Shown in pieces: positions 4,268-60,486 of a DNA stretch of 64,000 bases. The stretch's first letter is position 1. Every line of letters starts with the position of its first letter. The DNA is taken from the NCBI GenBank assembly GCA_911728435.2, contig OU452201.1, forward strand, positions 24,056,001-24,120,000, in the 5' to 3' direction. Both the position numbers and the translations under genes were made by a program. This DNA comes from Apoderus coryli. Taxonomy: Eukaryota > Arthropoda > Insecta > Coleoptera > Attelabidae. Below the pieces are notes generated by a model. The model was not told where the DNA came from, made no database searches, and saw nothing but the letters and a program-made list of their open reading frames with translations.

Positions 4268-6770
4268 TAGTATAATAATAATAATAATAATAATAATAAT
4301 CTTTATTCATCAGGTACAACAATAGTACATAGAATGTGTCAAAAACTTCACAAATAGCAATTCTCAAAATGACTATAATTACAATTACACAACCAGCACG
4401 TTAATATCTACAATCTACAAAAATAAATAAAAAAATACAGTAATATTTACATTGACAAACAACAATTATATCGAACAATCACTTTAACAATTAAGTATGT
4501 CCAAAATATTCATTCAACGAATAAAAACTGTGCTGTAAAAGCCAAGCCTTAACGCCGCATTTAAATTTTCTTGAACCAGGGATAACTTTCAGATGCCGAG
4601 GCAGATGGTTAAAAATCTTGATAGGCATTACCAAAGAACTATTTGCCGATAGGGAGAGTCTGTGAGCAGGTAGTCTTAAATTCAGCTTATGTCTTAGCTC
4701 ATAATTGGATATCTGGCTTGTGCTTTCAAATTTATCGATGTTAGAATAAACATAGAACGCACTCTCCAATATATAAATTGAGGTAACAGTTAAAATATGT
4801 AAGGTCTTAAACAATTGGCGGCAGGGAAATCTCGCAGATTTAAATGACATTGTCCTAATGATCCTCTTTTGTAAAATTAGTAGTTCGTCCGTGCGTCGCG
4901 AGTTACCCCATACCACAATTGAATAGGATAATACAGAATGGACATGTGCAAAATAGAAACATAACAACACATCAAGGGTAACAAAGCTTCTGAGTTTCGA
5001 GATCAAAAACGACAGCCTGCAGAGCTTCCTCGAAACAGTCTCGATTTGCCTGTACCAATTTAGATGCGAGTCGATCTCAACTCCCAAGAACCTCACTCCA
5101 TCTGTCTGCACAAGGCGGCACTCCGAACTCTGGACTCTTACGCTGTAGTCCACCTCCTTAGTAGAAAAATGGACGTGATTAGTTTTCCTCAAGTTCAACA
5201 CTAGGTCATTAGTACCACAATAACCCTGCATATCTTCCAGGCATTCATGCGCCTTGGCACTCAAACCGTTAATAGTATCAGCAGAAACTATTGCTGATGT
5301 ATCGTCTGCAAAAAGAGTTATGTCATGAGCGGATTTTATTAGTGAAGATATGTCAGAGATAAACATAATAAAAATCAACGGTCCCAGCGTGCTACCCTGG
5401 GGAACGCCAACGTTGATTTCACGAACTGACGACTCAAACGTGACACCGTTACGGTTGAGACTTACTTTCTGCGTTCTACCAGAGAGATATGATGCTATCC
5501 AATTTAAAGATGTTCCACGAATACCAGCGTTAAAAAGTTTAGATAATACATGTTGATGGTTTACCGTCTCAAAGGCACGCGTATAATCGAAAAATAAACC
5601 CGAACACTTTTGTCTCCCCTCCAGTCCCCTCAACACATTACCGACAAACCGAATCACCGCATCTTGCGTAGACATGCCTTGTCTAAACCCAAATTGGTTT
5701 TGGCCAAGTATATTGTACCTATTTACAAAATCATTAAGTTGATTATAGAAAGCATTTTCAAAAACTTTTGAGAAAACAGATAGTACTGAGATTCCTCTAT
5801 AGTTTACCACATTTTTTGGATCTTCCTTTTTAAAAATAGGCACAACTTTGGCCAGTTTTAAATCTTGCGGAAATTTACCATCCAGAAAAGAATGATTAAT
5901 TAAATGTGCCAAAATCGGTGCTATGTCTTCAATAACGTGCTTTAAGAGAGAGCAGGGGATACCATCAGAGCCGCTTGAGTCTTTTCGCGTTACCTTCCGC
6001 AGAATCCTACATACTTCCACTTCATGTACAGGGTGCAGAAAAAAAGTTTTACTATTAAATAGCGGTATCTCACGGTTCAATGAGTGATTGTTCGGTCTGA
6101 CCAAATTCTTAACCGAGTCAGTGAAATAGTCGTTAAACATATCCGCTGCATGCTCATCACAGGGATACTCTCGTTCATCTCCGTCCGTAAACGCAGAAGG
6201 ATATCGATTATCTTCACCCAAATTAACCTCGTCCTTGATTATTGTCCAACACATTTTTGATCTATTACGCGACGCATAGAATCGTGAGTTGTTAAAAGAC
6301 TTCTTCGCGTCAACTATTCGTTTTTTGTGTTTTTTATATAAGACCGTGTAAAGTTCTTTAATATTCTGATTTTTAGAAATTTTATATTGAAAATCCAACA
6401 TCCTAAGAAACTCTCCCTCAGATATAATATCGTCTGTCACCCAACAATTGTGTGATATTTTGTTTTTCATTTTAACAGACTTTAAGGGAAAACACAGATC
6501 CAATATGCTATCTAACTCTTTATTAAAATGTGTAAACTTCGCATCAACCCCAGCAGCATCTAACACGCCGTCCCACGTCTCATGAGATATACGGTATTTA
6601 AACATCTCAATACCAAATAGATCATTAAAATATCTTTTATTGACATACTTAACATTAGTGTCATTTATGGATCTTAAAATACTAAAATTTACAATCTGAT
6701 AAAAATGATCGGATATGTCGGTATTCCGTACAAGGGATGTCACATGATCATTGTAGAAATTACAAGTATT
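4268..6770 (-). mobile_element. Non-LTR retrotransposon inserted into an older LINE
   Basis: A minus-strand LINE occupies the gap between the two halves of the plus-strand Jockey-like copy. It ends on the minus strand with AAAGATTATTATT and a TTA repeat run (4303-4268) and starts near 6770, where the host RT frame resumes. The endonuclease half is missing (5' truncation), while the remainder of the protein is uninterrupted, which suggests a fairly young insertion. A clear target-site duplication was not identified by eye. Confidence 0.8.
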
Positions 6771-6833
6771 GAGCGCAAATAGAATGTTGGCTTTTATTAT
6801 TAGGAATTGTCGGCAATTCAACGATGTTTTCAC
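4491..6833 (-). CDS. LINE reverse transcriptase (5'-truncated, otherwise open)
   Basis: The frame is 780 codons. The first 21 or so residues are antisense host LINE sequence, so the element's own protein begins near 6770. Visible in order: a linker after the lost endonuclease (residues about 60-250); RT entry motifs LAKVVPIFKKEDPKNVVNYR (about 328-346) and GQNQFGFRQGMSTQDA (about 377-392); FFDYTRAFETVNH with the first catalytic Asp at about 416; GVPQGSTLGPL (476-486); LFADDT with the Asp pair at 510-511; then thumb and the conserved LQKRIIRTM and RLSLSANSSL segments, ending SLNEYF. All catalytic Asp residues are present. The tail motifs fit the CR1/Jockey group, but the clade is uncertain. 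It cannot move by itself without the apurinic endonuclease domain. Confidence 0.85.
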   Translation of the reverse strand: MKTSLNCRQFLIIKANILFALNTCNFYNDHVTSLVRNTDISDHFYQIVNFSILRSINDTNVKYVNKRYFNDLFGIEMFKYRISHETWDGVLDAAGVDAKFTHFNKELDSILDLCFPLKSVKMKNKISHNCWVTDDIISEGEFLRMLDFQYKISKNQNIKELYTVLYKKHKKRIVDAKKSFNNSRFYASRNRSKMCWTIIKDEVNLGEDNRYPSAFTDGDEREYPCDEHAADMFNDYFTDSVKNLVRPNNHSLNREIPLFNSKTFFLHPVHEVEVCRILRKVTRKDSSGSDGIPCSLLKHVIEDIAPILAHLINHSFLDGKFPQDLKLAKVVPIFKKEDPKNVVNYRGISVLSVFSKVFENAFYNQLNDFVNRYNILGQNQFGFRQGMSTQDAVIRFVGNVLRGLEGRQKCSGLFFDYTRAFETVNHQHVLSKLFNAGIRGTSLNWIASYLSGRTQKVSLNRNGVTFESSVREINVGVPQGSTLGPLIFIMFISDISSLIKSAHDITLFADDTSAIVSADTINGLSAKAHECLEDMQGYCGTNDLVLNLRKTNHVHFSTKEVDYSVRVQSSECRLVQTDGVRFLGVEIDSHLNWYRQIETVSRKLCRLSFLISKLRSFVTLDVLLCFYFAHVHSVLSYSIVVWGNSRRTDELLILQKRIIRTMSFKSARFPCRQLFKTLHILTVTSIYILESAFYVYSNIDKFESTSQISNYELRHKLNLRLPAHRLSLSANSSLVMPIKIFNHLPRHLKVIPGSRKFKCGVKAWLLQHSFYSLNEYFGHT

Positions 6834-7318
6834 GGTTAAGCTTTTGTTTTATGCATTTGTTAGATCTAAACTGGAATTTGCCGCAATTATATGGAACCCA
6901 ATATATAGTACTCGTATTAGATCCTTAGAGTCTGTTCAGCGCCGTTTCCTTAAATACCTAGCCTATAAAGCCGACAATGTTTATCCTCCACGGGCAGTAG
7001 ATCATGCGGGTAGATCATGCGTCTTTGCTCTTGCGTTTTAATGAACCTTCTCTCTTGCCAGAAGAAACATTCACGCAGTCAAGTTTTTATACAAATTATT
7101 GCACTACGCCGTTGATCGCCCATATCTATTGGGATGTATTAGATTCCGTGTTCGTGCCGTTCACTGTGGGCCCAGCCAGGACTAATATTTTATTACAAAG
7201 TCTTGTTTACTATATGTGTGATATTTTCAATCGGTGTTGTCGTGATTTTGACATTCATGACTCAACTTTGTCCGCGATTACTAATAGTGTTGATTTGTTT
7301 GAGGAATTGAAAGTATAG
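6771..7318 (+). pseudogene. Jockey-like LINE reverse transcriptase, part 2 of the split copy
   Basis: This is the continuation of the frame at 3868-4267. The first piece (to 7041) encodes FYAFVRSKLEFAAIIWNP and a RRFLKYLAYK segment, the normal C-terminal third of Jockey-type RT proteins. The second piece (7004-7318) continues in another frame with DHASLLLRF and an RTNILLQSLVYYMCDIFNR-type end. A short duplication of TAGATCATGCGG near 7000-7018 causes the frame change. A 3' non-coding region follows, ending GGAATAAATGCTTATTATT around 7535-7560, the poly-trinucleotide tail. Confidence 0.75.
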
Positions 7319-21321: not shown

Positions 21322-22003
21322 ATATATTTTATACAGATTAAAGTTATAATGTGCCTCCAAACATAGGTTCTAAAATCAATGTACACTACTTTTTAATGAT
21401 ATACAAGTGTGTTATATTTATATGAATGATAAATTTTATATTAAAGTCACCATTTGTTGAAAAAATAATATGTTATGAGATTATAACATATTTAACAGAA
21501 AATAAGAATTATTAACTTGAAGAGTTAATAACATCGTTTCTCTTTTTATTTTTTGCGTGTTTTACTCATGTCTTTAATTAATTTTAAAGTTAATTAACAA
21601 TTAATCAAACGAATTATTAGTTTTATGACTTTTCATTCTCGTGGTATAAGTAAAATGGCGAATATCATCAATAAACGGAAACTATCAATTTTGATTTTCA
21701 GGAATATGACGGTGAAGCTGACGTTTACTGCTATATTACTTAAATAAATTATTCTCCCTTATCGTGATCAGGGTGTTTTATTATACCTATTCCGAAATGA
21801 TGCTATCCCATTGTTTGGCACCTTTCAATGTTAGAATTGTTAAGATGTAATCAATATTGAGAGTTTCATGTAACTTTACGATTTAAATTAACAAATTTAA
21901 TATAAACTTAAATTATTACCGGAACTCAAGTGAAATAAGCCGTAAAATATAAAATTAGTTATTTTCAACATTACAGTTAATCACAAATAACTTGAAAACT
22001 ACT

Positions 22004-22502
22004 TTTTTCTACGACTGCCTTTAAATGCCTTTATTCTATGTTCAATCATGATTTGAAAATATAGTACATTGTAAAGCTGTTTTTCATTTACCCCTGGTAA
22101 TGACAAAAATAGGCATGAAAAATCACCATAGCAACGCCGACAATACAAACACACCAAATTAACTGTAGGTATTTCCAATTAATAATAGTTATAATTAAGT
22201 ATTTCGCTAATTTCAAAACAGTGATAGTGAATATAGTTTAACACCACCTAGTCAATTTAATACTTCTAACTTATCGTATTGAGGCTTACGGCAACTGGGG
22301 AAAGTTTCGAAAATCAAATATTTTCCTAAAAATTATGTTTAATTTATTCAAAAGCATTAAAACGGTCGAAAAAGTATAGTGTGAAACTCACATGAAATAA
22401 CCATTTCCTACTCATATGATTTGCAGCATGAGCCGCAGGCGAGTGCTGCAAACGTTCATACTCGTAGGAAATATGTCATTTCATGTTCGTTGCACAATAT
22501 AC
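22004..22502. repeat. Hairpin-ended repeat family, copy A
   Basis: The unit begins TTTTTCTACGACTGCCTTTA and includes an inner mirrored end (degenerate here, GGTCGAAAAAG). It is followed by a second inverted repeat: CTCACATGAAAT...CATTTCCTACTC against GTAGGAAATATGTCATTTCATG, with a GC-rich loop GCAGCATGAGCCGCAGGCG. Copies B (27403-27849) and C (41931-43621) share the whole layout. No coding capacity. Confidence 0.7.
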
Positions 22503-22868
22503 TAATTCAATCCCATTGATGCTAGAGAATGATATTTACGTAGAAAGTAACGAAGATTCCAAAAAACATGCTGGAATTTTTATGCCGGCCGTGGTGTAGG
22601 TTTTATAGGATAAAAAGGAAGTATCTATCCTTACCGCACGGTTCTGGTAATAGCGGAAAACTGTTTTTACTACTATTTTATCTATCCTACTAGGTAACTT
22701 ATAGAACAGTGTTCGCCAAGTATGAACAAAAAATATTGAAAGGTTCTAAAAGCATTTGGAAATATATATATTATAAAATACCCTCTCTCAGGGTACGTGA
22801 GATTTAAACTTTTCGTCCAATCTTCATATTTTGTTCTAAGGTATCTCCAATTACTATATGAAACCCTG

Positions 22869-26001: not shown

Positions 26002-27402
26002 CGGGGTCCATCAAGTGGAACAGTTTTGTGCAAAGGCCACGTTTTCTCAATTTTTTAAAATAAAAAGTTATAGTTTTTGAAGCGCTAACAAGATTACATT
26101 TTGATTATAAACGGAAGTTCTACCAGCTTGAACGTATTTTATATATCTGACCGCATTGAACTTAATACATCCGGTAAAGCTCATAACTTCCCGAATTAAA
26201 CTTTTTCAATATTTACCGCAGTCTTTTCCAGTTATTTTCAGGTGTTATCAATTCCATATTTATTTATTATTTAGAGAATTGCTTGGTCCATTCTCGCAGT
26301 AGAGGCTTGGATATTGTATTAAGTGACATCCTGATATTTATTTGGATAAGTTGATTTACTGTTTGTTTATTGTTTGAATAAAAAACGTATAGGTAACGTG
26401 TCGAGCTTTGCTTGTTTTAATTTAGGTTTACATAAACACAACACAATCCATATCGTTCTTGCAATGTTTGCTACATTTTATTTTATATAACATCAGCGTT
26501 CCATTCAATCACTACGACGACGTCTATACCATACCACTGATATGTTTATCCCGGACAACTCTACAGCCCATATATGAGGCAATTTTCGCGATAACACCAA
26601 CAACCCGACAACTGCAGACTATGCTGCGTATTATTACCGCTATTGACCAAAAAAAAAGATAAAAAAAAATCACCGATTAGGTACAAGCCCAGAAAACTTG
26701 TTAACAACCAACGATAAAGCGAACATATTGTTTGGAATCTGGCCCGGGAGATTTTCATTTTAGATCTCCGACTCGACCAGTTTTTGGCATCAGAAGAAGC
26801 GGAGAGAGTTTTAATGTTGATTTGAATCTGTTTGATGAGCTTTATTTATCAGATGTTTTAAATGCGCTCGCATTTGCGGCGATATTACGTAAAGCTTTTT
26901 TTCGATGTGAAAAAGAACAAATGTAATGTTCTGAATAAAATGAACTCGGAATATCAAAGTCTAATTTGCTGTCTTAATAAAACTTTGAAAAGATTGGATG
27001 AGGGTAATTATTAGAGTTAAAGGGAATAAATATATTAACCTTATAAATTTAAGGATTATATTTTTTATAATTTTCAATTAGTTAAAAATTAAAAGCATAC
27101 CAACGCCAAAATTGAAAAAAAAATGGTGATGCCAGTATCCAAAAAAAAGAATAATTTCAATGACTAACTAGAAAATCATTATTATTTTTTTTATTATTCT
27201 TGAACCCTAATTTTAATTTTTTTTCAGTTTACTTTTCTTGGGGTGTTCTGTTCTTATAAAAAATTTTCTTTACACAAATAAAAATAAATTAAATAAAATG
27301 ACAACGACGATTCGTCACAAATTAGTAACTTCTTCAGGTTGAACACATTTTTCTAAAATTACATGCACATACAAATTATTTAAGATAATTCTTTATATAT
27401 AT
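26002..27402. other. Intergenic stretch with two unassigned small frames
   Basis: Frames at 26459-26662 and 26732-26926 (the latter containing RSPTRPVFGIRRSGESFNVD) show no family I recognise. The second has moderate codon-like composition and could be an exon remnant. The remainder is low-complexity AT sequence. Confidence 0.3.
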
Positions 27403-27849
27403 TTTTTCTATGACTGTCTTTAAATGCCTTTATTCTATGTTCAATCACGATTTGAAAATGTAGTACATTGTAATGCTGTTTTTCATTTACCCGGTAAATT
27501 TCCTGGTAATGACAAAAATAGCATCGGGCATGAAAAATCACCATAGCAACGCCGACAATACAAACACACCAAATTGACAGTTTAGGTATTTACAATTAAT
27601 AATAATTATAATTAAGTATCTCGCTAATTTCAAAACACAAAAACAGTGATAGTGAATATAGTTTAACACCACCTAGTCAATTTAATACTTCTAACTTATC
27701 GTATTGAGGCTTACGGCAACTGGGGTAAGCTTCGAAAATCAAATATTTTCCTAAAAATTATGTTTAATTTATTCAAAAGCATTTAAACAGTCGTAGAAAA
27801 AGTATAGTGTGAAACTCACATGAAATGATCATTTCCTACACAATATACT
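27403..27849. repeat. Hairpin-ended repeat family, copy B
   Basis: It begins TTTTTTCTATGACTGTCTTT and ends its inner unit with GCATTTAAACAGTCGTAGAAAAA, which mirror each other over about 25 bp. It then continues GTATAGTGTGAAACTCACATG and stops after CATTTCCTAC, lacking the GC-rich loop and the return arm present in copies A and C. Confidence 0.7.
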
Positions 27850-37600: not shown

Positions 37601-37608
37601 TTACTAAG

Positions 37609-37810
37609 ACAAATAAGAGAGAGATGTATTTGGCGACACCTAGCGTGAACAGGCAATATGCCGGGTGAAACACAGTTCACAACGATGGCCGGACAAGAAG
37701 CAACAACTCCATTACATCCTATTGCCAACACTAGATGCGCCCGAATCCCATAGCAGGGAGGCTTTATTTAAGAATTGCTTGTTACATAAAGCAACAAGAC
37801 TGTAAGTTAT
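37609..37810 (+). repeat. Partial units of the hammerhead-bearing repeat, left of the Penelope-like element
   Basis: Bases 37609-37660 (GAGAGAGATGTATTTGGCG through ATATGCCGG) match the end of the roughly 230-bp repeat unit found in inverted form at 40389-40620. After a spacer, 37769-37810 (AGAATTGCTTGTTACATAAA, GCAACAAGACTGTAAGTTAT) is the beginning of another unit, which is then cut by the Penelope-like insertion. An end followed by a start is what a head-to-tail array would leave. Confidence 0.65.
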
Positions 37811-37898
37811 AACTGCGTAAAATAAAACAACTTTAGTTTTAAATATTTCCAAACTTTTATAATATACAAATTTATATTTCAAAATTACACGACACGTT
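37811..37898 (+). repeat. Left inverted terminal repeat of the Penelope-like element
   Basis: It is the mirror image of 40161-40252. It ends in ...CACGACACGTT, the complement of the cleavage-side half of the hammerhead at 40131-40174. The left copy thus contains only the stem III/stem I part of the ribozyme, and the mirror symmetry breaks inside the ribozyme core. Confidence 0.8.
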
Positions 37899-39437
37899 AC
37901 TTTCTCAAATCATAAGTTTTTCAATAGATTTGTAAATTTAACCAATTTAGAATTCAAAGAACATGAAGTCAATTTACTTAATAAAGGTTTCAAATACAAC
38001 CTACAACACTCTGATAAAAAAGAAATAATTGAAGCTACCGAAATTTTAGGTCTTGAAACAGAATTAATTTTAACAAATAATAAGCTTAGTAACAATAATC
38101 TTAAATATGAATCAGCAAACCTAATAAACAATCTTAGTTCTAAGCAAAATCATTGTAACATACAAGAATCGTTACTGTTAAGAAATTTAAGAGACAAAAC
38201 CAATAAGAATAATATAATCTTCACAAAAGCTGACAAAGGAAATACAATAGTAGCTATAGAAAAGACTCATTACATCAAGAAAACTGAGGAATTTTTAAAT
38301 CCAGACAGTTACAAGATTTTGCAGAAAGATCCTACAAATAAATTTCATAAACAAATACAATCAATTATCAACAATTGTAAAAGTCTGTTTAACGATTATG
38401 ATTCCAGAAGCTTAAATATTATGAACCCTCAAGCTCCAAAACTTTATTCACTTCTGAAGCTTCATAAAAATGGTTGTCCTGTAAGACCTGTCGTCTCATT
38501 CTACACGTCTCCCTCATATAAAGTTTCTCAAAGACTGACAAAAATTATCGTAGATATCACTAAATTTTCACCTAAATATGCCATAAAAAACTCTTTTGAA
38601 TTATCTCGGAAAATACAAAATATTACATTACCTAGCAATGCTAAACTTATATCATTTGATGTCACTAACCTCTTTCCAAGTGTACCTATAAACGAAATTA
38701 CACCTCTCATAGAAAACCTACTAAATTCCAATAAAACTAATTGCATAGTTAAACAAGATATTTTAACAGCCTTAGAAACATGCTTAAACCAAAATTATTT
38801 TGAATTCAACCAAAACATTTACAGCAGTACCAATGGTTTGATAATGGGCAATCCTTTGAGTCCCCTATTAGCAGAAAATTTTATGAACAATCTTGAACTT
38901 AAAATAGAACAACAACCTCTCTTTAAGAACTTTCTCTATTGGTATAGATACGTAGATGATGTACTTGCTTGTTTTGTAGGAACTGATAGACAACTTACCC
39001 AGTTTTTTGAATTTATCAACAATCAGCACCCTAACATAAAATTTACAATAGAACAAGAAACGAACAACTCTATCAATTTTCTTGATTTAACAATCACTAA
39101 AGTAAGTAACAGACACTCGTTTTCGATTTTTCATAAACCTACACATACAGACACAATTATACATAATACATCTAATCATCCTATCCAACATAAACTAGCC
39201 GCATTCCACAGTATGATCCATAGACTTGTTAATATTCCATTAAATAAAGTTAACTTCAAGAAAGAACTTAATATAATTAAACAAACAGCAGTAAACAATG
39301 GTTATCAACCGACAATAGTAGAAAAAATCCTAAACAAAATTAATTACAAAAAAACAATCAACACTGTTTTCCCTCAAAGCCCAAAAGATCCCCAAAATTA
39401 TGGCTTAATTACCTACTCAGGCCATAATTGCAAATAG
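37896..39437 (+). pseudogene. Penelope-like reverse transcriptase (frame broken by a 149-bp duplication)
   Basis: The frame is open upstream of the first in-frame Leu at 38319, back to about 37896 and further, with an N-terminal region including FTKADKGNTIVAIEKTHY (about 38220-38270), a conserved block preceding the RT. RT motifs counted from 38319: KLYSLLKLHKNGCPVRPVVS (41-60), SFDVTNLFPSVPI (112-124) with the first catalytic Asp, GLIMGNPLSPLLA (173-185) and RYVDDVLACF (210-219) with the YVDD pair, then NFLDLTI. All catalytic residues are present. The frame ends at HNCK where a second copy of the preceding segment begins; the duplication shifts the reading frame and cuts the RT from its endonuclease. 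Promoter sequence is not evident. Confidence 0.88.
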
Positions 39438-39579
39438 CAGTAAACAATGGTTATCAACCGACAATAGTAGAAAAAATCATAAACAAAATTAATTACAAAA
39501 AAACAATCAACACTGTTTTCCCTCAAAGCCCAAAAGATCCCCAAAATTATGGCTTAATTACCTACTCAGGCCATAATTG
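39287..39579 (+). repeat. Tandem duplication of 144 bp inside the Penelope-like ORF
   Basis: Bases 39287-39430 recur at 39436-39579 with a single difference (AATCCTAAAC against AATCATAAAC) and a 5-base filler CAAAT between copies. The period of 149 is not a multiple of three, so it causes the frameshift. Near identity points to a recent event, or an assembly artefact. Confidence 0.95.
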
Positions 39580-40006
39580 TTCCTATATTTCAAAATTTTT
39601 TAACCAACATAATATAAAAATAGCTTTTAAAACCAACAATACAATAGGAAAAATTATCAAAAATTCAAAATAAAAAATAGATAAGAGAGAAAAATCTGGA
39701 GTGTATGAACTGACGTGTGGAGACTGCGATCGGGTTTACATAGGACAGACAGGTCGAAGTTTTTCTAAAAGAATTAAGGAACACTACTTAAGTTATATCA
39801 AGAAAAAAGACAATTCTAATTACTCTAACCATCTTTTAGAACATAATCATAATTTTAACGATAATTTCAAAATTATTCATATAGAAAACAAAAGTAAAAA
39901 GCTGGATCTTCTAGAATCATTAGAAATAAACAAACTTAAATATTCTAACAAATTACTGAATAGCCAAACAGATTTAAATAATTCCCCTTTGTTAAACCTC
40001 TTTTAA
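39434..40006 (+). pseudogene. Penelope-like C-terminal region with GIY-YIG endonuclease
   Basis: After the duplication the protein continues in the new frame: NYGLITYSGHNCSYISKFF, NQHNIKIAFKTNNTIGKIIK, one in-frame TAA at 39671-39673, then EKSGVYELTCGDCDRVYIGQ and TGRSFSKRIKEHYLSY. The last segments form the GIY-YIG nuclease fold, with VYIGQTGR as the second signature and RIKEH carrying the conserved Arg and His. CGDC is part of the Cys-rich segment normally preceding it. The frame before and after the stop is the same, so only one codon separates the two parts. It ends PLLNLF at 40006. Confidence 0.88.
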
Positions 40007-40130
40007 TTTTTGTAACCCTAGGTAGTTTTTATGCACCTGTGACCTAGTTATTAGTTTTCATTTTGTTACACTTTTACTATATTTTATTACCTGTACAAAC
40101 CATATAAATATTTTGTATTTTAGTCTTAAG

Positions 40131-40174
40131 TTACACTTGATAAAGCCACTGTGTGGACGAAACATGTCGTGTAA
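40131..40174 (+). ncRNA. Variant hammerhead at the 3' end of the Penelope-like element
   Basis: Stem I TTACAC (40131-40136) pairs perfectly with GTGTAA (40169-40174). Between them: TTGATAA in the place of CUGAUGA, an extra A, stem II CCAC/GTGG with loop TGT and a weak base, GAAA, the self-complementary ACATGT stem III and a GTC cleavage site. The two departures from the core, C3 to U and G8 to A, fall on the two bases known to form a Watson-Crick pair in the active ribozyme, so pairing is kept as U-A. Activity is unproven. Confidence 0.5.
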
Positions 40175-40252
40175 TTTTGAAATATAAATTTGTATATTAT
40201 AAAAGTTTGGAAATATTTAAAACTAAAATTGTTTTATTTTACGCAGTTATAA
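40161..40252 (+). repeat. Right inverted terminal repeat of the Penelope-like element
   Basis: Mirror image of 37807-37898 over 92 bases with two mismatches. It begins within the hammerhead (AACATGTCGTGTAA) and ends CGCAGTTATAA. Confidence 0.85.
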
Positions 40253-40330
40253 TGAATTTCCAACAAGTATCGGCTAATTCTATTCAAACTGTAAGTTATG
40301 TTGGAAATTTGTTTCACACCACTATGCTTT

Positions 40331-40372
40331 CACCAGACGGCCGTTTCGTCGATCCACGACTCATCAGTGGTG
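40331..40372 (-). ncRNA. Type I hammerhead ribozyme, left palindrome arm
   Basis: Minus strand: stem I CACCA, core CTGATGA, stem II GTCG/CGAC with loop TGGAT, core GAAA, minimal stem III ACGG/CCGT without loop, cleavage site GTC, stem I return TGGTG. Every conserved core base is present. Beyond stem I, TGC/GCA and CTA/TAG can pair around internal loops, where peripheral contacts are expected in natural hammerheads. The loop-less stem III is typical of hammerheads from Penelope-like elements and retrozymes. Confidence 0.88.
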
Positions 40373-40505
40373 ATCGGCAGGTAGTGTGCCGGCATATTGC
40401 CTGTTCACGCTAGGTGTCGCCAAATACATCTCTCTCTCAATCAATTCTCGTGCTGGTATAAGCTCTTTGTAAATGTTGGAGGTTTGGGTCACACTACCTG
40501 CCGAT

Positions 40506-40547
40506 CACCACTGATGAGTCGTGGATCGACGAAACGGCCGTCTGGTG
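40506..40547 (+). ncRNA. Type I hammerhead ribozyme, right palindrome arm
   Basis: It is identical in sequence to the motif at 40331-40372 but encoded on the plus strand, because it lies in the opposite arm of the palindrome. All core residues and all three stems are intact; predicted cleavage is after the C of GTC at 40540-40542. A transcript from either strand through this region would carry one active-sense ribozyme and one antisense copy able to pair with it. Confidence 0.88.
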
Positions 40548-40620
40548 AAAGCATAGTGGTGTGAAACAAATTTCCAACATAACTTACAGTCTTGTTGCTT
40601 TATGTAACAAGCAATTCTTA

Positions 40621-41002
40621 AGACAAATAAGTTTTTTCAAAATATTTGTTTGTGTAGGTACACACATTTTCAAAATTAGTTTGAAATATAACTTCCAAAC
40701 GGGATGTATATAAAACAAAATCAGGATCTGGCATCATTAATCCACCAAAATTACTTAATCCTGTCTTAAAAATGAGCAGCACACAATCTGTAGCTACTCA
40801 AATTTTTACTAGCTAAGATCTTCATGGCCCTAACCAACCGTCCAAATTTCAGCTCTATAGAACATAAAACACTGATTATTATACCATAACATACAACTAC
40901 GCATAATATAAGATTACAGGAAGAATTCCATTTCAAAAATAAGACAATATACCACATCACTATAAAAATAAAATACAATAAGTTAATCGAAACAAAACTT
41001 AC
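40621..41002. other. Intergenic or possibly intronic stretch
   Basis: A 70-codon minus frame (40766-40978) rich in hydrophobic residues has no recognised motif. If the splice donor at 41001-41002 (minus strand) is real, this interval would be intron. Confidence 0.3.
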
Positions 41003-41711: not shown

Positions 41712-42396
41712 GTATTATAAATAAAATAATATTCATTTCCCAATACAAATCGAAATATACATACAATAACAATATCAGAATGAGTGGAAACAAACATTAG
41801 AGAAACAAATATCTCCTTATAGATAATTAATATTAAATTTTCTAATCAAATCAAAATGCTCGCATTTAGCAAAAGCGCTGATGCGCTTGTCCACTAAATT
41901 TGCGCAAAAAGAGTATCGGACATAAATATATTTTTTCTACGACTGTCTTTAAATGCCTTTATTATAGGTTCAATCATGATTTGAAAATGTAGTACATTGT
42001 AATGCTGTTTTTCATTTACCCGTGCGTAATAATTGCTGCTAGGCAACTAGTGGGAAATATTATTACGCACGGATAAATTTTCCTGGTAATGACAAAAGTA
42101 GCGGCGGGAATGAAATATCACCATAGCAACGCCGAAAATACAAACACCAAATTGACAGTTTTGGTATTTATAATTAATAATAATTATAATTAAGTATTTC
42201 GCTAATTTCAAAACACATAAACAGTGATAGTGAATATAGTTTAACACCACCTAGTCAATTAATACTTCTAATTTATCGTATTTAGGCTTATACGTTAACA
42301 GGGGTAAGTTTCGAAAAACAAATATTTTCCTAAAAAGTATGTTAAATTTATTCAAAAGCATTAAAACAGTCGTAGAAAAAGTATAGTATGAAACAT

Positions 42397-43500
42397 AACA
42401 TAACATAACTTTTAAAATAAATTCAACTGATCACATAAAATACCTAGGTATAGAAATTGACAAATTCTTAAAATGGGATGTTCATATAAGCTCATTAGTA
42501 AAAAAATTACGAGGGATATTGTGTAAATTTAAGCAATTGCAAAATATAGGACAAAAATACCTGATAATGATGTATTATGCTCTAGTGGATTCGCTTGTAC
42601 AATATGGCATTATTGGTTGGGGAGCTGCTTATCGAGTTCATATTAAACATGTCGAAATAATACAAAAATCTTTTATTAAAATCATTTTGGGTAAAACGCG
42701 AACATATCCTACTGAAGACTTATATAATGAAAGTAAATTTTTTGATATAAGACAGCAATATTGTTACAATATATTGCTGACACAATTCAAAAATAAAAGC
42801 CAATTGATGCACATAGATCACAATTACAACACAAGAAATAAAATTGAAAGGAGAATAAAAACAAAAACAGCGTCAAAAACAATTGGACAAAGATCATATT
42901 CTTACTTGGCTCCGCGTCTATTTGGCAGTATTCCTGAACATATCAGACAAATAAACAGTAAAGAAATGTTTAAAAAGTTTATCAGAAGGTGGATGATATC
43001 GGTTCCAAGAAAATTCTTCTATGAACTAGTAGATTAAAGAGAAGAAAGAATTGTTTGTTTTTGCTTTCCTCGTATTATACTCATATTATGTTGATTAAAT
43101 ACTTATATGTAATTTATGTTAAATTTAGTGTCTTTGTGAAAATTATTAAAATAAATTTTTTTTTTATTTTTGTGGTACTGTATAGTGTATGATTATTTTT
43201 TTTTTTATTTTTGTGGTACTGTATAGTGTATACGGGGTATGATATATTAGTATAAGGGCTATTACAACTACAAAGATTTTTCGAGTTTGGAGTTTTCTTT
43301 AATTTAGTGTTTGTACATAAAACGAAAAATCAAACCACGCACAAATCATTAGATTGATTTCTGTGGTAAGATTTTTTTGTTTGTTTACCAGGATTAAGTT
43401 TTTTTTTTTTTTTTCATAAATGATGCTTTTTATTTAAACTGTATTTGAATTATTGTATATTGCTGCTTGGTTGAATAAACATTATTATTATTATTATTAT
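42397..43500 (+). mobile_element. 5'-truncated LINE inserted in repeat copy C
   Basis: The insert starts after GAAAC at 42396 and ends GGTTGAATAAACATTATTATT with a trinucleotide tail to about 43500. The surrounding repeat is contiguous in copy A, which defines both borders. A pair of near-identical 50-base blocks ending GTACTGTATAGTGTA lies in its 3' region at about 43150-43240. Confidence 0.8.
42412..43037 (+). CDS. LINE reverse transcriptase, C-terminal region
   Basis: The open frame can be read from about 42412 as INSTDHIKYLGIEIDKFLKW and DVHISSLVKKLRG, continuing into YALVDSLVQYGIIGWGAAYR, HVEIIQKSFIKIILGKTR, HNYNTRNKIERR and IGQRSYSYLAPRLFGSIPE. This is the region after the RT palm in CR1/RTE-X-like LINE proteins (YLGIxID and GIIGWGxAY motifs). 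The palm with its catalytic Asp residues is missing. The relative at 44116-44600 shares GIIGWGGAY and SIGQRMF. The frame is intact to the stop but cannot be functional alone. Confidence 0.75.
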
Positions 43501-43770
43501 TAAACTCACATGAAATGACCATTTCCTACTCGTTTGATTTGCAGCACTCGCCTGCGGCTCATGCTGCAAACGATCATACTCGTAGGAAATATGTCATTTC
43601 GCGTTCGTTGCACAATATACTATTGTTATACACCTCATTTAGTTTAATATAAAAAAAAAAAGAGTATATTCTCATCACTTCGTAATATCTGCAAACAATG
43701 TAAAATACCGAATAAATAATCACTTTATATAACTTAATATAGCCCCTCTAATTGACTTAAAAAATGTTAA

Positions 43771-43985
43771 ATAAGAATTGCTTGTTACATAAAGCAACAA
43801 GACTTTAAGTTATGTTGGAAATTTGTTGCACACTACCATGCTTCCACCAGACGGCCGTTTCGTCGATCCACGACTCATGAGTGGTGATCGGCAGGCAGTG
43901 TGACCCAAATTTCCAACATTTACAAAGAGCTTATACGAGCATGAGAATTAATTGAGAGAGAGAGATGTTTTTGGCGAGCGTTTAC
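43771..43985 (+). repeat. Uninterrupted copy of the hammerhead-bearing repeat
   Basis: From AGAATTGCTTGTTACATAAA through GTTATGTTGGAAATTTGTTG, the hammerhead (43845-43886) and GAGAGAGAGATGTTTTTGG it parallels the unit read on the minus strand from 40620 to 40400. Its CAACAAGACTTTAAGTTATG is the empty-site equivalent of the Penelope-like insertion point. Confidence 0.8.
43845..43886 (-). ncRNA. Hammerhead ribozyme with a core mutation
   Basis: It is the same as the 40331-40372 motif, with all stems intact, but the core box reads CTCATGA: the invariant G5 is C. G5 is essential in characterised hammerheads, so this copy is expected to be inactive. Confidence 0.8.
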
Positions 43986-58554: not shown

Positions 58555-60486
58555 ATGCAAATGAGCAGCAAAGAAAATTTTGATTTTGGTGAATCACAGA
58601 GCCGTTTGCAGTTGAGACTTCCAAGAAGAGATCGTCGTAAAATCATGGCAATATTTGTTTTATCTGGTATATTGTTTCTATATAGCATTTTTACCATGAT
58701 TTACGGATTTTATGTTCTTAAAGTAGGAGTAATTGAGTACTGCTCAATTATAATTTGTTTAACAGTTCTTGCAACAATTGGAGGTAAATCATAATAAATT
58801 ACAGAGATATATAGTTAGGTAGTTCTGCAGTAACGTTTGTAGTAAAATTTTATGTTAGTGAATGAGGTAATGTCGCTATAATGAATTTAATTGTGAAAGA
58901 TAAAGACCTAAATTCACCCTAAACCAGTCTTAACAAATGGTAACAACGGCACTTTATTATTATTTATTTATTAGGTAATCACCTTTCAGCAATTTTTAAA
59001 ACCACTTACACGAAAACAAAAAACCGCTGCTTCAATACAAGTTAGTCATGATAATATCAAACTGCAAATTTACGTACCTACCGAATATATTTGTAATCGA
59101 TAAAGAAAAATAACAATAAAATTGAACTTGGGGGGACATGGGGCTCTGCGGGCCTCGTATTGGACATAACCAATAATGATTAGGTCAGGGCTTTATTTTC
59201 TTCAATTAAATTCACTAACCTAACCTTAAATTATACTATGTAAGTGGAATTTTAAAAAAAAGCCTCCCGCTAGCGAATTCGAGTGTATCTAGGGTTGGGA
59301 ATAGGATGTAATGAAGGTATTACTTCTTGTCCGGCCTTCGTTAGTGAACTTTGTTTCAGCGGACATTTTTCGAATATAGTTTATATTACAAACTAATATT
59401 ATTTTGTGGGTCTCTGTCTGCCTCTTAAGTTTCCGCTTTCGTTGAGAGAGTATAGGGCCATGATATCACCACTATCATATTGTACAGCAATTTTTAAACG
59501 TTCTTTTTCTTAGAACGTATTATGTAACATATAACTCGTTACCAGCACATCTTAAAGTTTTTCGGTTGAATTTAGGTAATTCAGAGACACATACAGAAAA
59601 ATATTGTTAAATATTATATAAATAAATAAGTAATATTTTTCTCTATGTTCAGTTATATTATGTTCTTTATTGTTTGTGTTTCAGGAAATATAATACCTAT
59701 GTGTAGGTATATCACATCTAATGTTTTTTGGGCTACATGTTACAACTAAAATTGTACCACCTATAACTATCTATTTTGGGGCTGGAACTTAGAATCAGCT
59801 TGCCTGCCTTCCAGCCCTTTGTGCAAATTGTCATCCACGAAATAATTCCAATATATCTTTCAATATTTCTTTACCATGACCACACATATTTCAGAGCATC
59901 AGGCCCCATCATCAGTGGTCAATCAAAACCTAAGCTATTGCATTATGTAAGAATTTACTTGTCACAAGATAAAATTAAGAAGTGTATTAAGGTCACTTCG
60001 AGGAAAATTAGGTTATAAATGTTTTATTAACTAATTAAAATCATAGTTGCCACAAATACCTAATGGGATTCTGTTTATAAATCATAAGTGCAAATTTCAA
60101 TTGTATTTACAAATAAAAAAAAATTTCACACTTAATACTTATTGATAACTAATTAACATATTATTTTTTAGGATTTTCAGTAAATAAGAAGTTTCTTTTG
60201 ATCATAATTTCTATCGTCTACATTGTAATATTTATTGTTCTGTTATCATCGTTCTTTATTTTCATCACAATGAAAATGACGAATATTGCCAAGGACAACG
60301 TTAATAAATATTTATTAGGTAAGAAATTGTACATTTTTATAGTATTTAGAACCAACAGATCCTGATTTTGAAATGGCTCTTTGCCAATATCTAAGAATAC
60401 ACGTTGTTCCTCCGGGAACACCCGCGATATATAATGAAATGACGAAATATATTATAGAGTCTGCAAAAATTGACTTGCCTTTATAA
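58555..60486 (+). CDS. Three-exon gene for a 170-residue multi-membrane-segment protein
   Basis: Exons: 58555-58783, 60172-60318 and 60350-60486. The ATG at 58555 opens a hydrophilic, basic N-terminus (LPRRDRRK), then membrane segments at about residues 30-54, 58-76 and 84-110, and a polar C-terminal tail (PTDPDFEMALCQYLRIH to the stop). Splice signals are GGAG/GTAAAT with TTTTTTAG for intron 1 (1388 bp) and TTAG/GTAAGA with TATTTAG for intron 2, which is only 31 bases. Exons join in phase, and AATAAA lies 10 bases past the stop. The layout of three segments plus a loop recalls part of a tetraspanin, but no CCG motif is present, so I assign no family. It is the only convincing host gene in the window. 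Confidence 0.6.
59877..59921 (-). ncRNA. Hammerhead-like motif within intron 1, cleavage site changed to GTG
   Basis: Minus strand: stem I TGACCA/TGGTCA (six perfect pairs), core CTGATGA exact, extra T, stem II GGGGC/GCTCT around CTGAT (with wobbles), GAAA exact, short stem III ATATGT, then G at the cleavage position. GUG is not cleaved by known hammerheads, so the core is conserved but cleavage is predicted to be lost. It lies antisense in the intron of the gene at 58555-60486. Confidence 0.55.

What the first reader, a model, noticed from the sequence alone, without database searches (positions are those of the whole stretch)
40288..40590. Two identical hammerhead ribozymes as mirror images in a perfect 101-bp palindrome
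Arms 40288-40388 and 40490-40590 are exact reverse complements, and each contains a complete type I hammerhead with every core base intact. A transcript from either strand would hold one ribozyme and its own antisense in one hairpin. The hairpin should block the ribozyme unless folding during transcription lets it cut first; cleavage would then release a defined end. Established: compact hammerheads occur in Penelope-like elements and retrozymes, normally head to tail. Inference: this head-to-head arrangement is either a recombination product or a distinct replication intermediate.
Basis: partly seen in the sequence, partly recalled or inferred. Interest (0 to 1): 0.9.

Follow-up and report, generated by a model that had tools for sequence, protein, structure and literature searches.

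The report
Head-to-head hammerhead retrozyme insertion, Penelope-like footprint
The mirror-image ribozymes are one copy of a small ribozyme-carrying mobile RNA element, and the way many copies sit in this genome suggests that a Penelope-type retrotransposon pasted them in by copying RNA onto both cut DNA strands.

Summary
In detail: arms 40288-40388 and 40490-40590 are exact reverse complements, each with a core-intact type I hammerhead (33.8 bits; Rfam cut-off 34). The interpretation changes. The palindrome is the centre of an insertion (37618-40618) of a 336-nt animal-type retrozyme, flanked by a 13-bp target-site duplication (TSD) and split by a nested Penelope-like element (PLE) with its own 12-bp TSD. 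Head-to-head is usual here: 37 of 37 clusters with two strands run minus then plus. Of 29 two-armed insertions with TSD of 9 bp or more, 27 have one end near unit 77 and the other near 231; none has two of one kind. The genome's PLE shows the same layout (29 of 40 scored loci, 11 single-stranded, none reversed), TSD length and two-end asymmetry; one LINE gave 0 of 40. Best explanation: hammerhead-processed, perhaps circular, retrozyme RNA is reverse-transcribed by PLE protein from both target strands, starting at two opposed sites. PLEs were proposed before as movers of animal retrozymes; this is footprint evidence. Circles, ribozyme activity and trans-mobilisation remain inferred; no chimeric insertion was found.

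The parts
37605..37617 (.). left 13-bp target-site duplication of the retrozyme insertion (TAAGACAAATAAG)
   Evidence: chance control: 0 of 349 random places give 12 or more
37618..37810 (-). outer part of the retrozyme left arm, unit 229 down to 37 (its last 12 nt are the left TSD of the nested PLE)
37799..37810 (.). left 12-bp TSD of the nested PLE (ACTGTAAGTTAT, retrozyme units 37-48)
37811..37898 (-). PLE short inverted arm (3' UTR, corresponds to about 40248..40161), end without tail
37899..40287 (+). PLE main arm, 5'-truncated, ends with the tail
38319..39437 (+). PLE reverse transcriptase ORF (372 aa)
   Evidence: (RVT_1 5.2e-10)
39282..39579 (+). 149-nt tandem duplication inside the PLE ORF; other PLE copies listed align in two pieces that break at this repeat
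39674..40003 (+). GIY-YIG endonuclease domain of the PLE (downstream of a stop in this copy)
   Evidence: (PF01541 8.8e-7)
40131..40174 (+). minimal hammerhead-like motif in the PLE 3' region (core U3/A8 instead of C3/G8; no Rfam match)
   Evidence: read by eye; no hit there
40252..40287 (+). PLE tail = probably the first 36 nt of the PLE ORF, present at one end only
40288..40299 (.). right 12-bp TSD of the nested PLE
40288..40388 (-). palindrome left arm = inner part of the retrozyme left arm, unit 48 down to 1 then 336 to 284
40330..40373 (-). type I hammerhead ribozyme, copy 1
40388..40389 (.). head-to-head junction (unit 284 minus | unit 183 plus, no extra bases)
40389..40618 (+). retrozyme right arm, unit 183 through 336 to 76 (contains palindrome right arm 40490-40590)
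40505..40548 (+). type I hammerhead ribozyme, copy 2 (expected cleavage after 40542)
40619..40631 (.). right 13-bp TSD of the retrozyme insertion
43772..43977 (-). separate single-armed retrozyme copy, 94% identical, unit 78 to 211, hammerhead core broken

Best explanation
The palindrome is the middle of a non-autonomous retrozyme insertion. Retrozyme RNA (336-nt units) is cut out by the hammerhead and probably circularised. The protein of a co-resident Penelope-like element binds it, nicks both strands of AT-rich target DNA 12-14 bp apart and uses both 3' ends as primers. One cDNA starts at unit ~74-81 and the other at unit ~229-235, two strands predicted to be unpaired in the same RNA multiloop. 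Both cDNAs run toward the RNA 5' direction, sometimes several units long, and their 3' ends are joined in the middle, some with a short overlap, some with extra bases. This gives two outward-facing retrozyme arms head-to-head between TSDs. In this copy a PLE later inserted into the left arm. Shown from sequence: insertion, TSDs, head-to-head polarity, paired ends, independent templating of the arms in some loci, footprint shared with the PLE. Inferred: circular template, PLE protein acting in trans, simultaneous priming, ribozyme activity.
For: Polarity: 37 of 37 two-strand retrozyme clusters (three duplicate loci dropped; two near-identical copies in L064 both counted) run minus then plus. 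Paired ends: 27 of 29 two-armed insertions with TSD>=9 are A/B, 0 A/A, 0 B/B, against 0.5^27=7.5e-9 for free choice. TSD: 35 sites with 11-15 bp, mode 13; random control >=9 bp in 3 of 349, >=12 in 0. The PLE of the same genome: 29 of 40 scored loci minus-then-plus, 11 one strand only, none the other way; 13 copies read (12 of them chosen as pairs) end at the tail (40287) on one side; the other side ends at about 40242-40253 in 12 of 13 (40185 in L055); TSD 12-14 in 11 of 13. LINE control: 0 of 40 scored loci with an opposite-strand partner. Nick context similar: A at -3/-2 in 69/74% of 70 retrozyme half-sites and 61/50% of 18 PLE half-sites. The published PLE enzyme PAc nicks and extends both strands, prefers ATT, and starts RT at two internal sites (PMC11167929, main text read). 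In 6 of the 29 two-armed events of the first sample compared (L011, L016, L017, L031, L034, window) each arm holds at least 30 unit positions that the other lacks, so neither can be a plain copy of the other. Both start sites are among the least paired stretches of the folded circle (92nd and 99.7th percentile; 1.2% of equally spaced pairs do as well); monomer fold z -6.2. Arms up to 3.9 units long.
Against: No RNA data: circles, cleavage and expression are not seen here. The minimum-energy fold of the isolated hammerhead is not the active three-way junction, and the Rfam score is 0.2 bits under the cut-off. No PLE sequence was found in the 53 other retrozyme loci, so no chimera, which template switching might have left. 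The published enzyme showed no strand difference in start site in vitro (PMC11167929), so the strict one-of-each rule needs something more. In retrozymes the two ends lie about 153 nt apart, in the PLE only about 40, so the analogy is structural; the PLE short end is not especially unpaired (58-64th percentile). Exceptions: L037 (unit 213), L020 (unit 120), and without a TSD L036 (240/233, two of one kind), L011 (240/68), L039 (235/51), both L064 copies (9/233) and an old copy in L021 (261/84). 9 of 38 TSD insertions are single-armed. Junctions give no strong microhomology signal: of 37, overlap 1-8 nt in 15, flush in 4, gap of 1-40 nt in 17, one overlap of 22 (no chance expectation was computed). 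Same-molecule origin of the arms is weak: private variants in all copies of both arms 10, in both arms but not all copies 1, in one arm only 86. The LINE control is one family, mostly 70-80% identical to the query, so short partner arms could be missed.
Confidence: 0.8

Rival explanations
1. Self-priming (snap-back): one cDNA or antisense RNA folds back and copies itself, giving the palindrome (self-priming is the model offered for PLE palindromes in PMC3846280, passage).
For: Exact palindrome and arms identical over 181 positions in this copy; arms of one locus are closer than the median arm of other loci in 26 of 29 (confounded by subfamilies). Two junction gaps (L027, L038) look like small fold-back sequence.
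Against: In 6 of 29 events, the window among them, each arm carries sequence the other lacks, and in 27 of 29 TSD-flanked pairs both outer ends are at fixed places of different kind.
Confidence: 0.08
2. Ordinary LINE twin priming of a retrozyme RNA by a LINE in this genome.
For: LINE-type reverse transcriptases are present; twin priming also gives inverted segments and TSDs (recalled).
Against: 0 of 40 scored LINE loci show an opposite-strand partner (one family); LINE twin priming does not predict two fixed start sites used one each (recalled); no poly(A) run is seen at the retrozyme ends printed.
Confidence: 0.06
3. Recombination or inversion between neighbouring direct tandem retrozymes made the head-to-head pair.
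For: Inverted repeats within the unit (extended stem I) could promote inversion; direct tandems exist.
Against: It would not produce TSDs at the outer ends nor the A/B rule, and should also leave tail-to-tail pairs; 37 of 37 are head-to-head.
Confidence: 0.03
4. The hammerhead unit is the PLE's own pseudo-LTR, and the palindrome is a PLE inverted terminal repeat.
For: PLE pLTRs carry hammerheads and inverted copies (PMC3846280, PMC11167929); the unit flanks a PLE here.
Against: The PLE here is nested, with a 12-bp TSD made of retrozyme sequence; none of the 53 other retrozyme loci, within the stretches fetched, contains PLE sequence; the other 12 PLE copies read end in their own tail or short end followed by a TSD or host DNA.
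Confidence: 0.03

Closest known systems
Metazoan non-LTR retrozymes (PMC7229834, PMC7761336; passages read)
   Same: Type I hammerhead, unit of a few hundred nt (336), tandem copies, GC 44.6%, no long open stretch (56 codons), TSD longer than 4 bp
   Different: Frequent head-to-head two-armed insertions with two fixed ends; the passages seen describe tandem copies, and 'inverted' does not occur in the main text of PMC7229834
Penelope/Poseidon-type PLE insertions (PMC3846280 passages; PMC11167929 main text)
   Same: Head-to-head arms, TSD, two alternative 3' ends (tail on one inverted end), AT-rich target
   Different: The retrozyme shows no protein-coding stretch; its two ends are about 153 nt apart on a 336-nt unit instead of a 30-40 bp tail
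LINE-1 twin priming (recalled)
   Same: Two target-strand primers, inversion, TSD
   Different: LINE-1 has one fixed 3' end; here both ends are fixed and of different kind

Membership tests
Metazoan non-LTR retrozyme | canonical type I hammerhead with intact core | tested here: met
   (33.8 bits, just short of the cut-off 34); core intact in 84 of 91 fully covered motifs of the first sample and window, duplicates included; core varies less than the rest, 0.72% v 1.70%, Fisher p 0.005, but not by rank test, p 0.44. Loop I/II tertiary contacts not tested
Metazoan non-LTR retrozyme | unit about 150-450 nt, multimeric copies, low GC | tested here: met
   336 nt, up to 3.9 units per arm, GC 0.446
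Metazoan non-LTR retrozyme | no LTR/PBS/PPT, no protein | tested here: inconclusive
   no LTR layout seen; longest open stretch 56 codons; PBS/PPT not searched
Metazoan non-LTR retrozyme | circular RNA in tissue | not testable with these tools
   no RNA data held
Metazoan non-LTR retrozyme | self-cleavage | not testable with these tools
   needs a bench assay
Penelope-like element (the nested element) | PLE-type reverse transcriptase and GIY-YIG endonuclease | tested here: met
   RVT_1, GIY-YIG; among relatives several carry both Pfam domains; assignment to PLE rests on this pairing and the insertion structure, no tree was built
Penelope-like element (the nested element) | inverted partial copy, tail at one end, TSD | tested here: met
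   tail reads on in frame in another copy
Penelope-like element (the nested element) | minimal hammerhead in the pLTR | tested here: inconclusive
   hammerhead-like motif by eye at 40131-40174, U3/A8 in place of C3/G8, no Rfam hit
PLE-mobilised non-autonomous element | same insertion footprint as the autonomous partner (polarity, paired ends, TSD length, target) | tested here: met
PLE-mobilised non-autonomous element | trans-mobilisation shown by chimeric insertions | tested here: not met
   no PLE sequence in the fetched retrozyme loci L009-L046 and L063-L077
PLE-mobilised non-autonomous element | trans-mobilisation shown by experiment | not testable with these tools
   needs a bench assay

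The most novel reading that the evidence does not exclude
One circular ribozyme RNA serves both target strands at once: a PLE protein dimer holds the multiloop so that each subunit starts on one of two opposed single strands, and two reverse transcriptases run round the same RNA circle in the same direction without meeting. That would explain the one-of-each rule, the multi-unit arms and the head-to-head insertions, and would make circle formation the purpose of the hammerhead.
Probability: 0.35. Interest if true: 0.88.

Novelty: new variant of a known kind. Interest (0 to 1): 0.7.

Why it matters
Which machinery moves animal retrozymes has been open; PLEs were named as likely candidates because both carry type I hammerheads and occur together (PMC7229834, PMC7761336, passages read). 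A shared and rather strange insertion footprint in one genome is more direct evidence, and it gives predicted RT start sites that can be assayed. It also bears on how PLEs make head-to-head copies: the retrozyme is a 336-nt minimal substrate, and several loci speak against self-copying as the only route.

Tried and rejected
Considered and dropped: (a) that the PLE and the hammerhead unit form one chimeric element made by template switching; the 12-nt duplication at 37799-37810/40288-40299 shows a nested insertion instead. (b) Assembly artefact; many loci with different TSDs. (c) Snap-back as sole mechanism. (d) That arms of one locus must come from one RNA molecule: private variants, 10 in all copies of both arms, 1 in both arms partly, 86 in one arm, not decisive. 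(e) Retrozyme-PLE chimeras: no PLE sequence in the retrozyme loci. (f) Lower variation of the ribozyme core: significant by pooled Fisher test, not by rank test. (g) Microhomology at the inner junctions: mixed, so not claimed. (h) Species: not identified; among the 120 listed RT relatives the named organisms are insects (beetles, psyllids, flies, a butterfly) apart from one bacterial metagenome label; a LINE protein search gave no useful name. The isolated-hammerhead fold does not show the active fold. The loose hammerhead pattern gave 34 matches (2 of 100 shuffles gave as many); its other places were not followed.

Sampling limits: the first set (40 scored loci of 1275 first-look candidates; all 40 covered by the window and L009-L046) was found with the head-to-head sequence itself and is biased to two-armed copies. 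The second (40 scored of 709; its new places fetched as 15 stretches) used units 101-191 only. Before counting, L012, L023, L024 were dropped as duplicates of L011 and L020 (this also dropped a separate fragment, L024:75-273), and the window's copies at 43772 and 59248 are not in the tally. L064 holds two near-identical copies, both counted among the 37. L069 and L073 count as two-armed by their end letters, though BLAST sees one arm. The pieces of the window copy and of L018 were joined over their nested insertions by coordinates. The '29' (first sample, with or without TSD) is another set than the '29'. L047-L049 are one PLE event. The 12 fetched PLE copies were picked because they were pairs; the unpicked count is 29 of 40 (222 first-look candidates). 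The LINE control is one query, read by eye from the table. Paper listings were partial (20 of 22; 25 of 44; 8 of 11).

Full report
What is there. The two arms are exact reverse complements and each carries a type I hammerhead with intact core. Rfam scores both at 33.8 bits, just under the curated 34, so the default scan lists neither.

The window belongs to a genome of 428 Mb in 129 contigs, by size and content a eukaryote. Searching this genome with the 303-bp palindrome returned 180 matches from 40 scored loci, so the sequence is a repeat family. In a fetched locus the repeat runs head to tail with a period of 335-336 nt. Counting from the base after the expected hammerhead cleavage site, that unit (L010:4600-4935) is the coordinate system used below. 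GC is 44.6% and the longest open stretch is 56 codons. These are features of the animal non-LTR retrozymes described in PMC7229834 (passages read).

Anatomy of the window copy. A retrozyme insertion runs from 37618 to 40618 between 13-bp duplications TAAGACAAATAAG. Its left arm is minus, from unit 229 down through 1 to 284; its right arm is plus, from unit 183 through 336 to 76. The junction lies between 40388 and 40389. The left arm is split by a second insertion, a Penelope-like element at 37811-40287, bounded by ACTGTAAGTTAT, which is retrozyme units 37-48 duplicated. The PLE has a reverse transcriptase (RVT_1 5.2e-10; best-scoring relative 65% identical over 99% of the query) and a GIY-YIG domain (8.8e-7), but this copy is 5'-truncated, holds a 149-nt tandem duplication and a stop. 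The PLE is head-to-head too: a short minus arm (37811-37898) and a long plus arm. The plus arm ends with 36 nt that look like the start of the PLE ORF: another copy (L060), joined over a 12-letter overlap, continues in frame. That matches the 'tail' of the PLE literature.

The architecture is common, not an accident. I fetched 38 retrozyme loci found with the palindrome and 15 stretches found with units 101-191 only. After dropping three duplicates, all 37 clusters in which BLAST sees two strands have the minus arm on the left and the plus arm on the right, that is 5' ends together and 3' ends outward. Among 56 clusters, 38 have a TSD of at least 9 bp. Of these, 29 are two-armed, two of them with a very short second arm (L069, L073). 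In 27 of the 29, one outer end lies at unit 74-81 (A) and the other at 229-235 (B). None is A/A or B/B. The two exceptions are L037 (unit 213) and L020 (unit 120; two duplicates of the same insertion, L023 and L024, end at 77). The nine single-armed insertions end at A (3) or B (6) and are cut off at the other side, as in ordinary 5' truncation. Ten further two-armed clusters have no TSD of 9 bp or more: L009, L021, L022 and L075 are A/B by their BLAST ends; L036 is B/B (240/233); L011, L039, the two L064 copies and an old copy in L021 fit neither class. The sample that was not found with the palindrome gives, of 12 with TSD, six two-armed (all A/B) and six single-armed. TSDs are 11-15 bp with mode 13 (35 sites). 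The same search at 349 random places gave 9 bp or more three times and never 12.

The PLE of the same genome leaves the same footprint. Of 40 scored PLE loci, 29 are minus-then-plus, none plus-then-minus, 11 single-stranded in the table. In the 13 copies that I read, 12 of them chosen because they were pairs, one end is at the tail (40287); the other lies near 40242-40253 in 12 and at 40185 in L055; 11 have TSDs of 12-14 bp; three of the 13 are one event. The sequence beside the nicks is similar: A at -3/-2 in 69 and 74% of 70 retrozyme half-sites and 61 and 50% of 18 PLE half-sites. As a control, a LINE from the window (4300-6900) gave 40 scored loci and no opposite-strand partner (read by eye; most copies are only 70-80% identical to the query, so short arms could be missed); 29 of 40 against 0 of 40, Fisher p 9e-13.

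How it probably works. PMC11167929 (main text read) shows for the anole PLE protein PAc that it nicks and extends both target strands, prefers ATT, and starts reverse transcription inside the RNA at two sites whose interval is the tail. Two primed strands on one kind of RNA give two antisense cDNAs with their RNA-3' ends outward, which after joining is a head-to-head copy. For the retrozyme the two starts would be A and B. In the circular fold of the unit (-111.8 kcal/mol, z -6.2) both lie in unpaired strands of the same multiloop; they rank at the 92nd and 99.7th percentile for being unpaired, and 1.2% of pairs with the same spacing do as well. In the PLE the tail end is also unpaired (96-98th percentile) but the short end is not unusual (58-64th). 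Arms of up to 3.9 units fit copying round a circle, though a multimeric linear RNA would do as well. Inner junctions are scattered: overlap of 1-8 nt in 15 of 37, flush in 4, gaps of 1-40 nt in 17, one overlap of 22; this does not single out a joining mechanism.

Alternatives. Self-priming, proposed for rotifer PLEs (PMC3846280, passages), cannot by itself make a pair in which each arm has sequence the other lacks; that is so in 6 of the 29 first-sample events, this one included. Recombination among tandem copies would not give TSDs or the A/B rule. LINE twin priming is expected to give one fixed end, and the LINE control shows no such pairs. The unit is not the PLE's own terminal repeat, because the PLE is nested and no PLE sequence was found in the other 53 retrozyme loci as fetched.

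What is not shown. No RNA evidence is available here: cleavage, circles and expression are inferred from known retrozymes. Trans-mobilisation is inferred from the shared footprint; no chimeric insertion was found. The strict one-of-each rule goes beyond the published enzyme, for which no strand difference was seen in vitro.

Known or new. PMC7229834 and PMC7761336 (passages) name PLEs as candidates for moving animal retrozymes because of co-occurrence. The listings (some cut, as told below Tried and rejected) show no paper whose title or start of abstract reports head-to-head retrozymes or a shared PLE footprint; the 2014 paper on PLE hammerheads is not held and most subscription papers are outside the library. 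I rate it a new variant of a known kind.

Noticed in passing
40131-40174: The PLE 3' region has a minimal hammerhead-like motif whose C3/G8 pair is replaced by U3/A8 (stem I TTACAC/GTGTAA, GAAAC-AT-GTC); another PLE copy (L055) has the same core letters with one stem base changed. Not an Rfam match; whether it cleaves is open.
   Followed up: partly
39282-39579: A 149-nt tandem duplication (99% identical) inside the PLE ORF shifts the frame; alignments of other PLE copies break there, so it seems private to this copy.
   Followed up: partly
59248-59369 and L021:6045-6581: Old retrozyme relatives at 75-81% identity, so the family has probably been in this genome for long.
   Followed up: no
L020, L023, L024: Three copies of one retrozyme insertion with the same TSD; L020 ends at unit 120, the others at 77. 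A 43-nt deletion at a TTAAA repeat might explain it, which would make the original end atypical.
   Followed up: partly
L018:4267-8408: About 4.1 kb of other DNA inserted inside a retrozyme arm near unit 14-18.
   Followed up: no
41923-42409, 43487-43624, 22003-22506, 27394-27815: Another dispersed repeat of the window with direct and inverted copies (78-93% identity).
   Followed up: no
units 71-76 and 237-242 of the retrozyme; 40276-40281 of the PLE: The hexamer AATTCT occurs next to both retrozyme start sites and in the PLE tail; retrozyme and PLE also share AATTTCCAACA. May be chance in AT-rich DNA.
   Followed up: no
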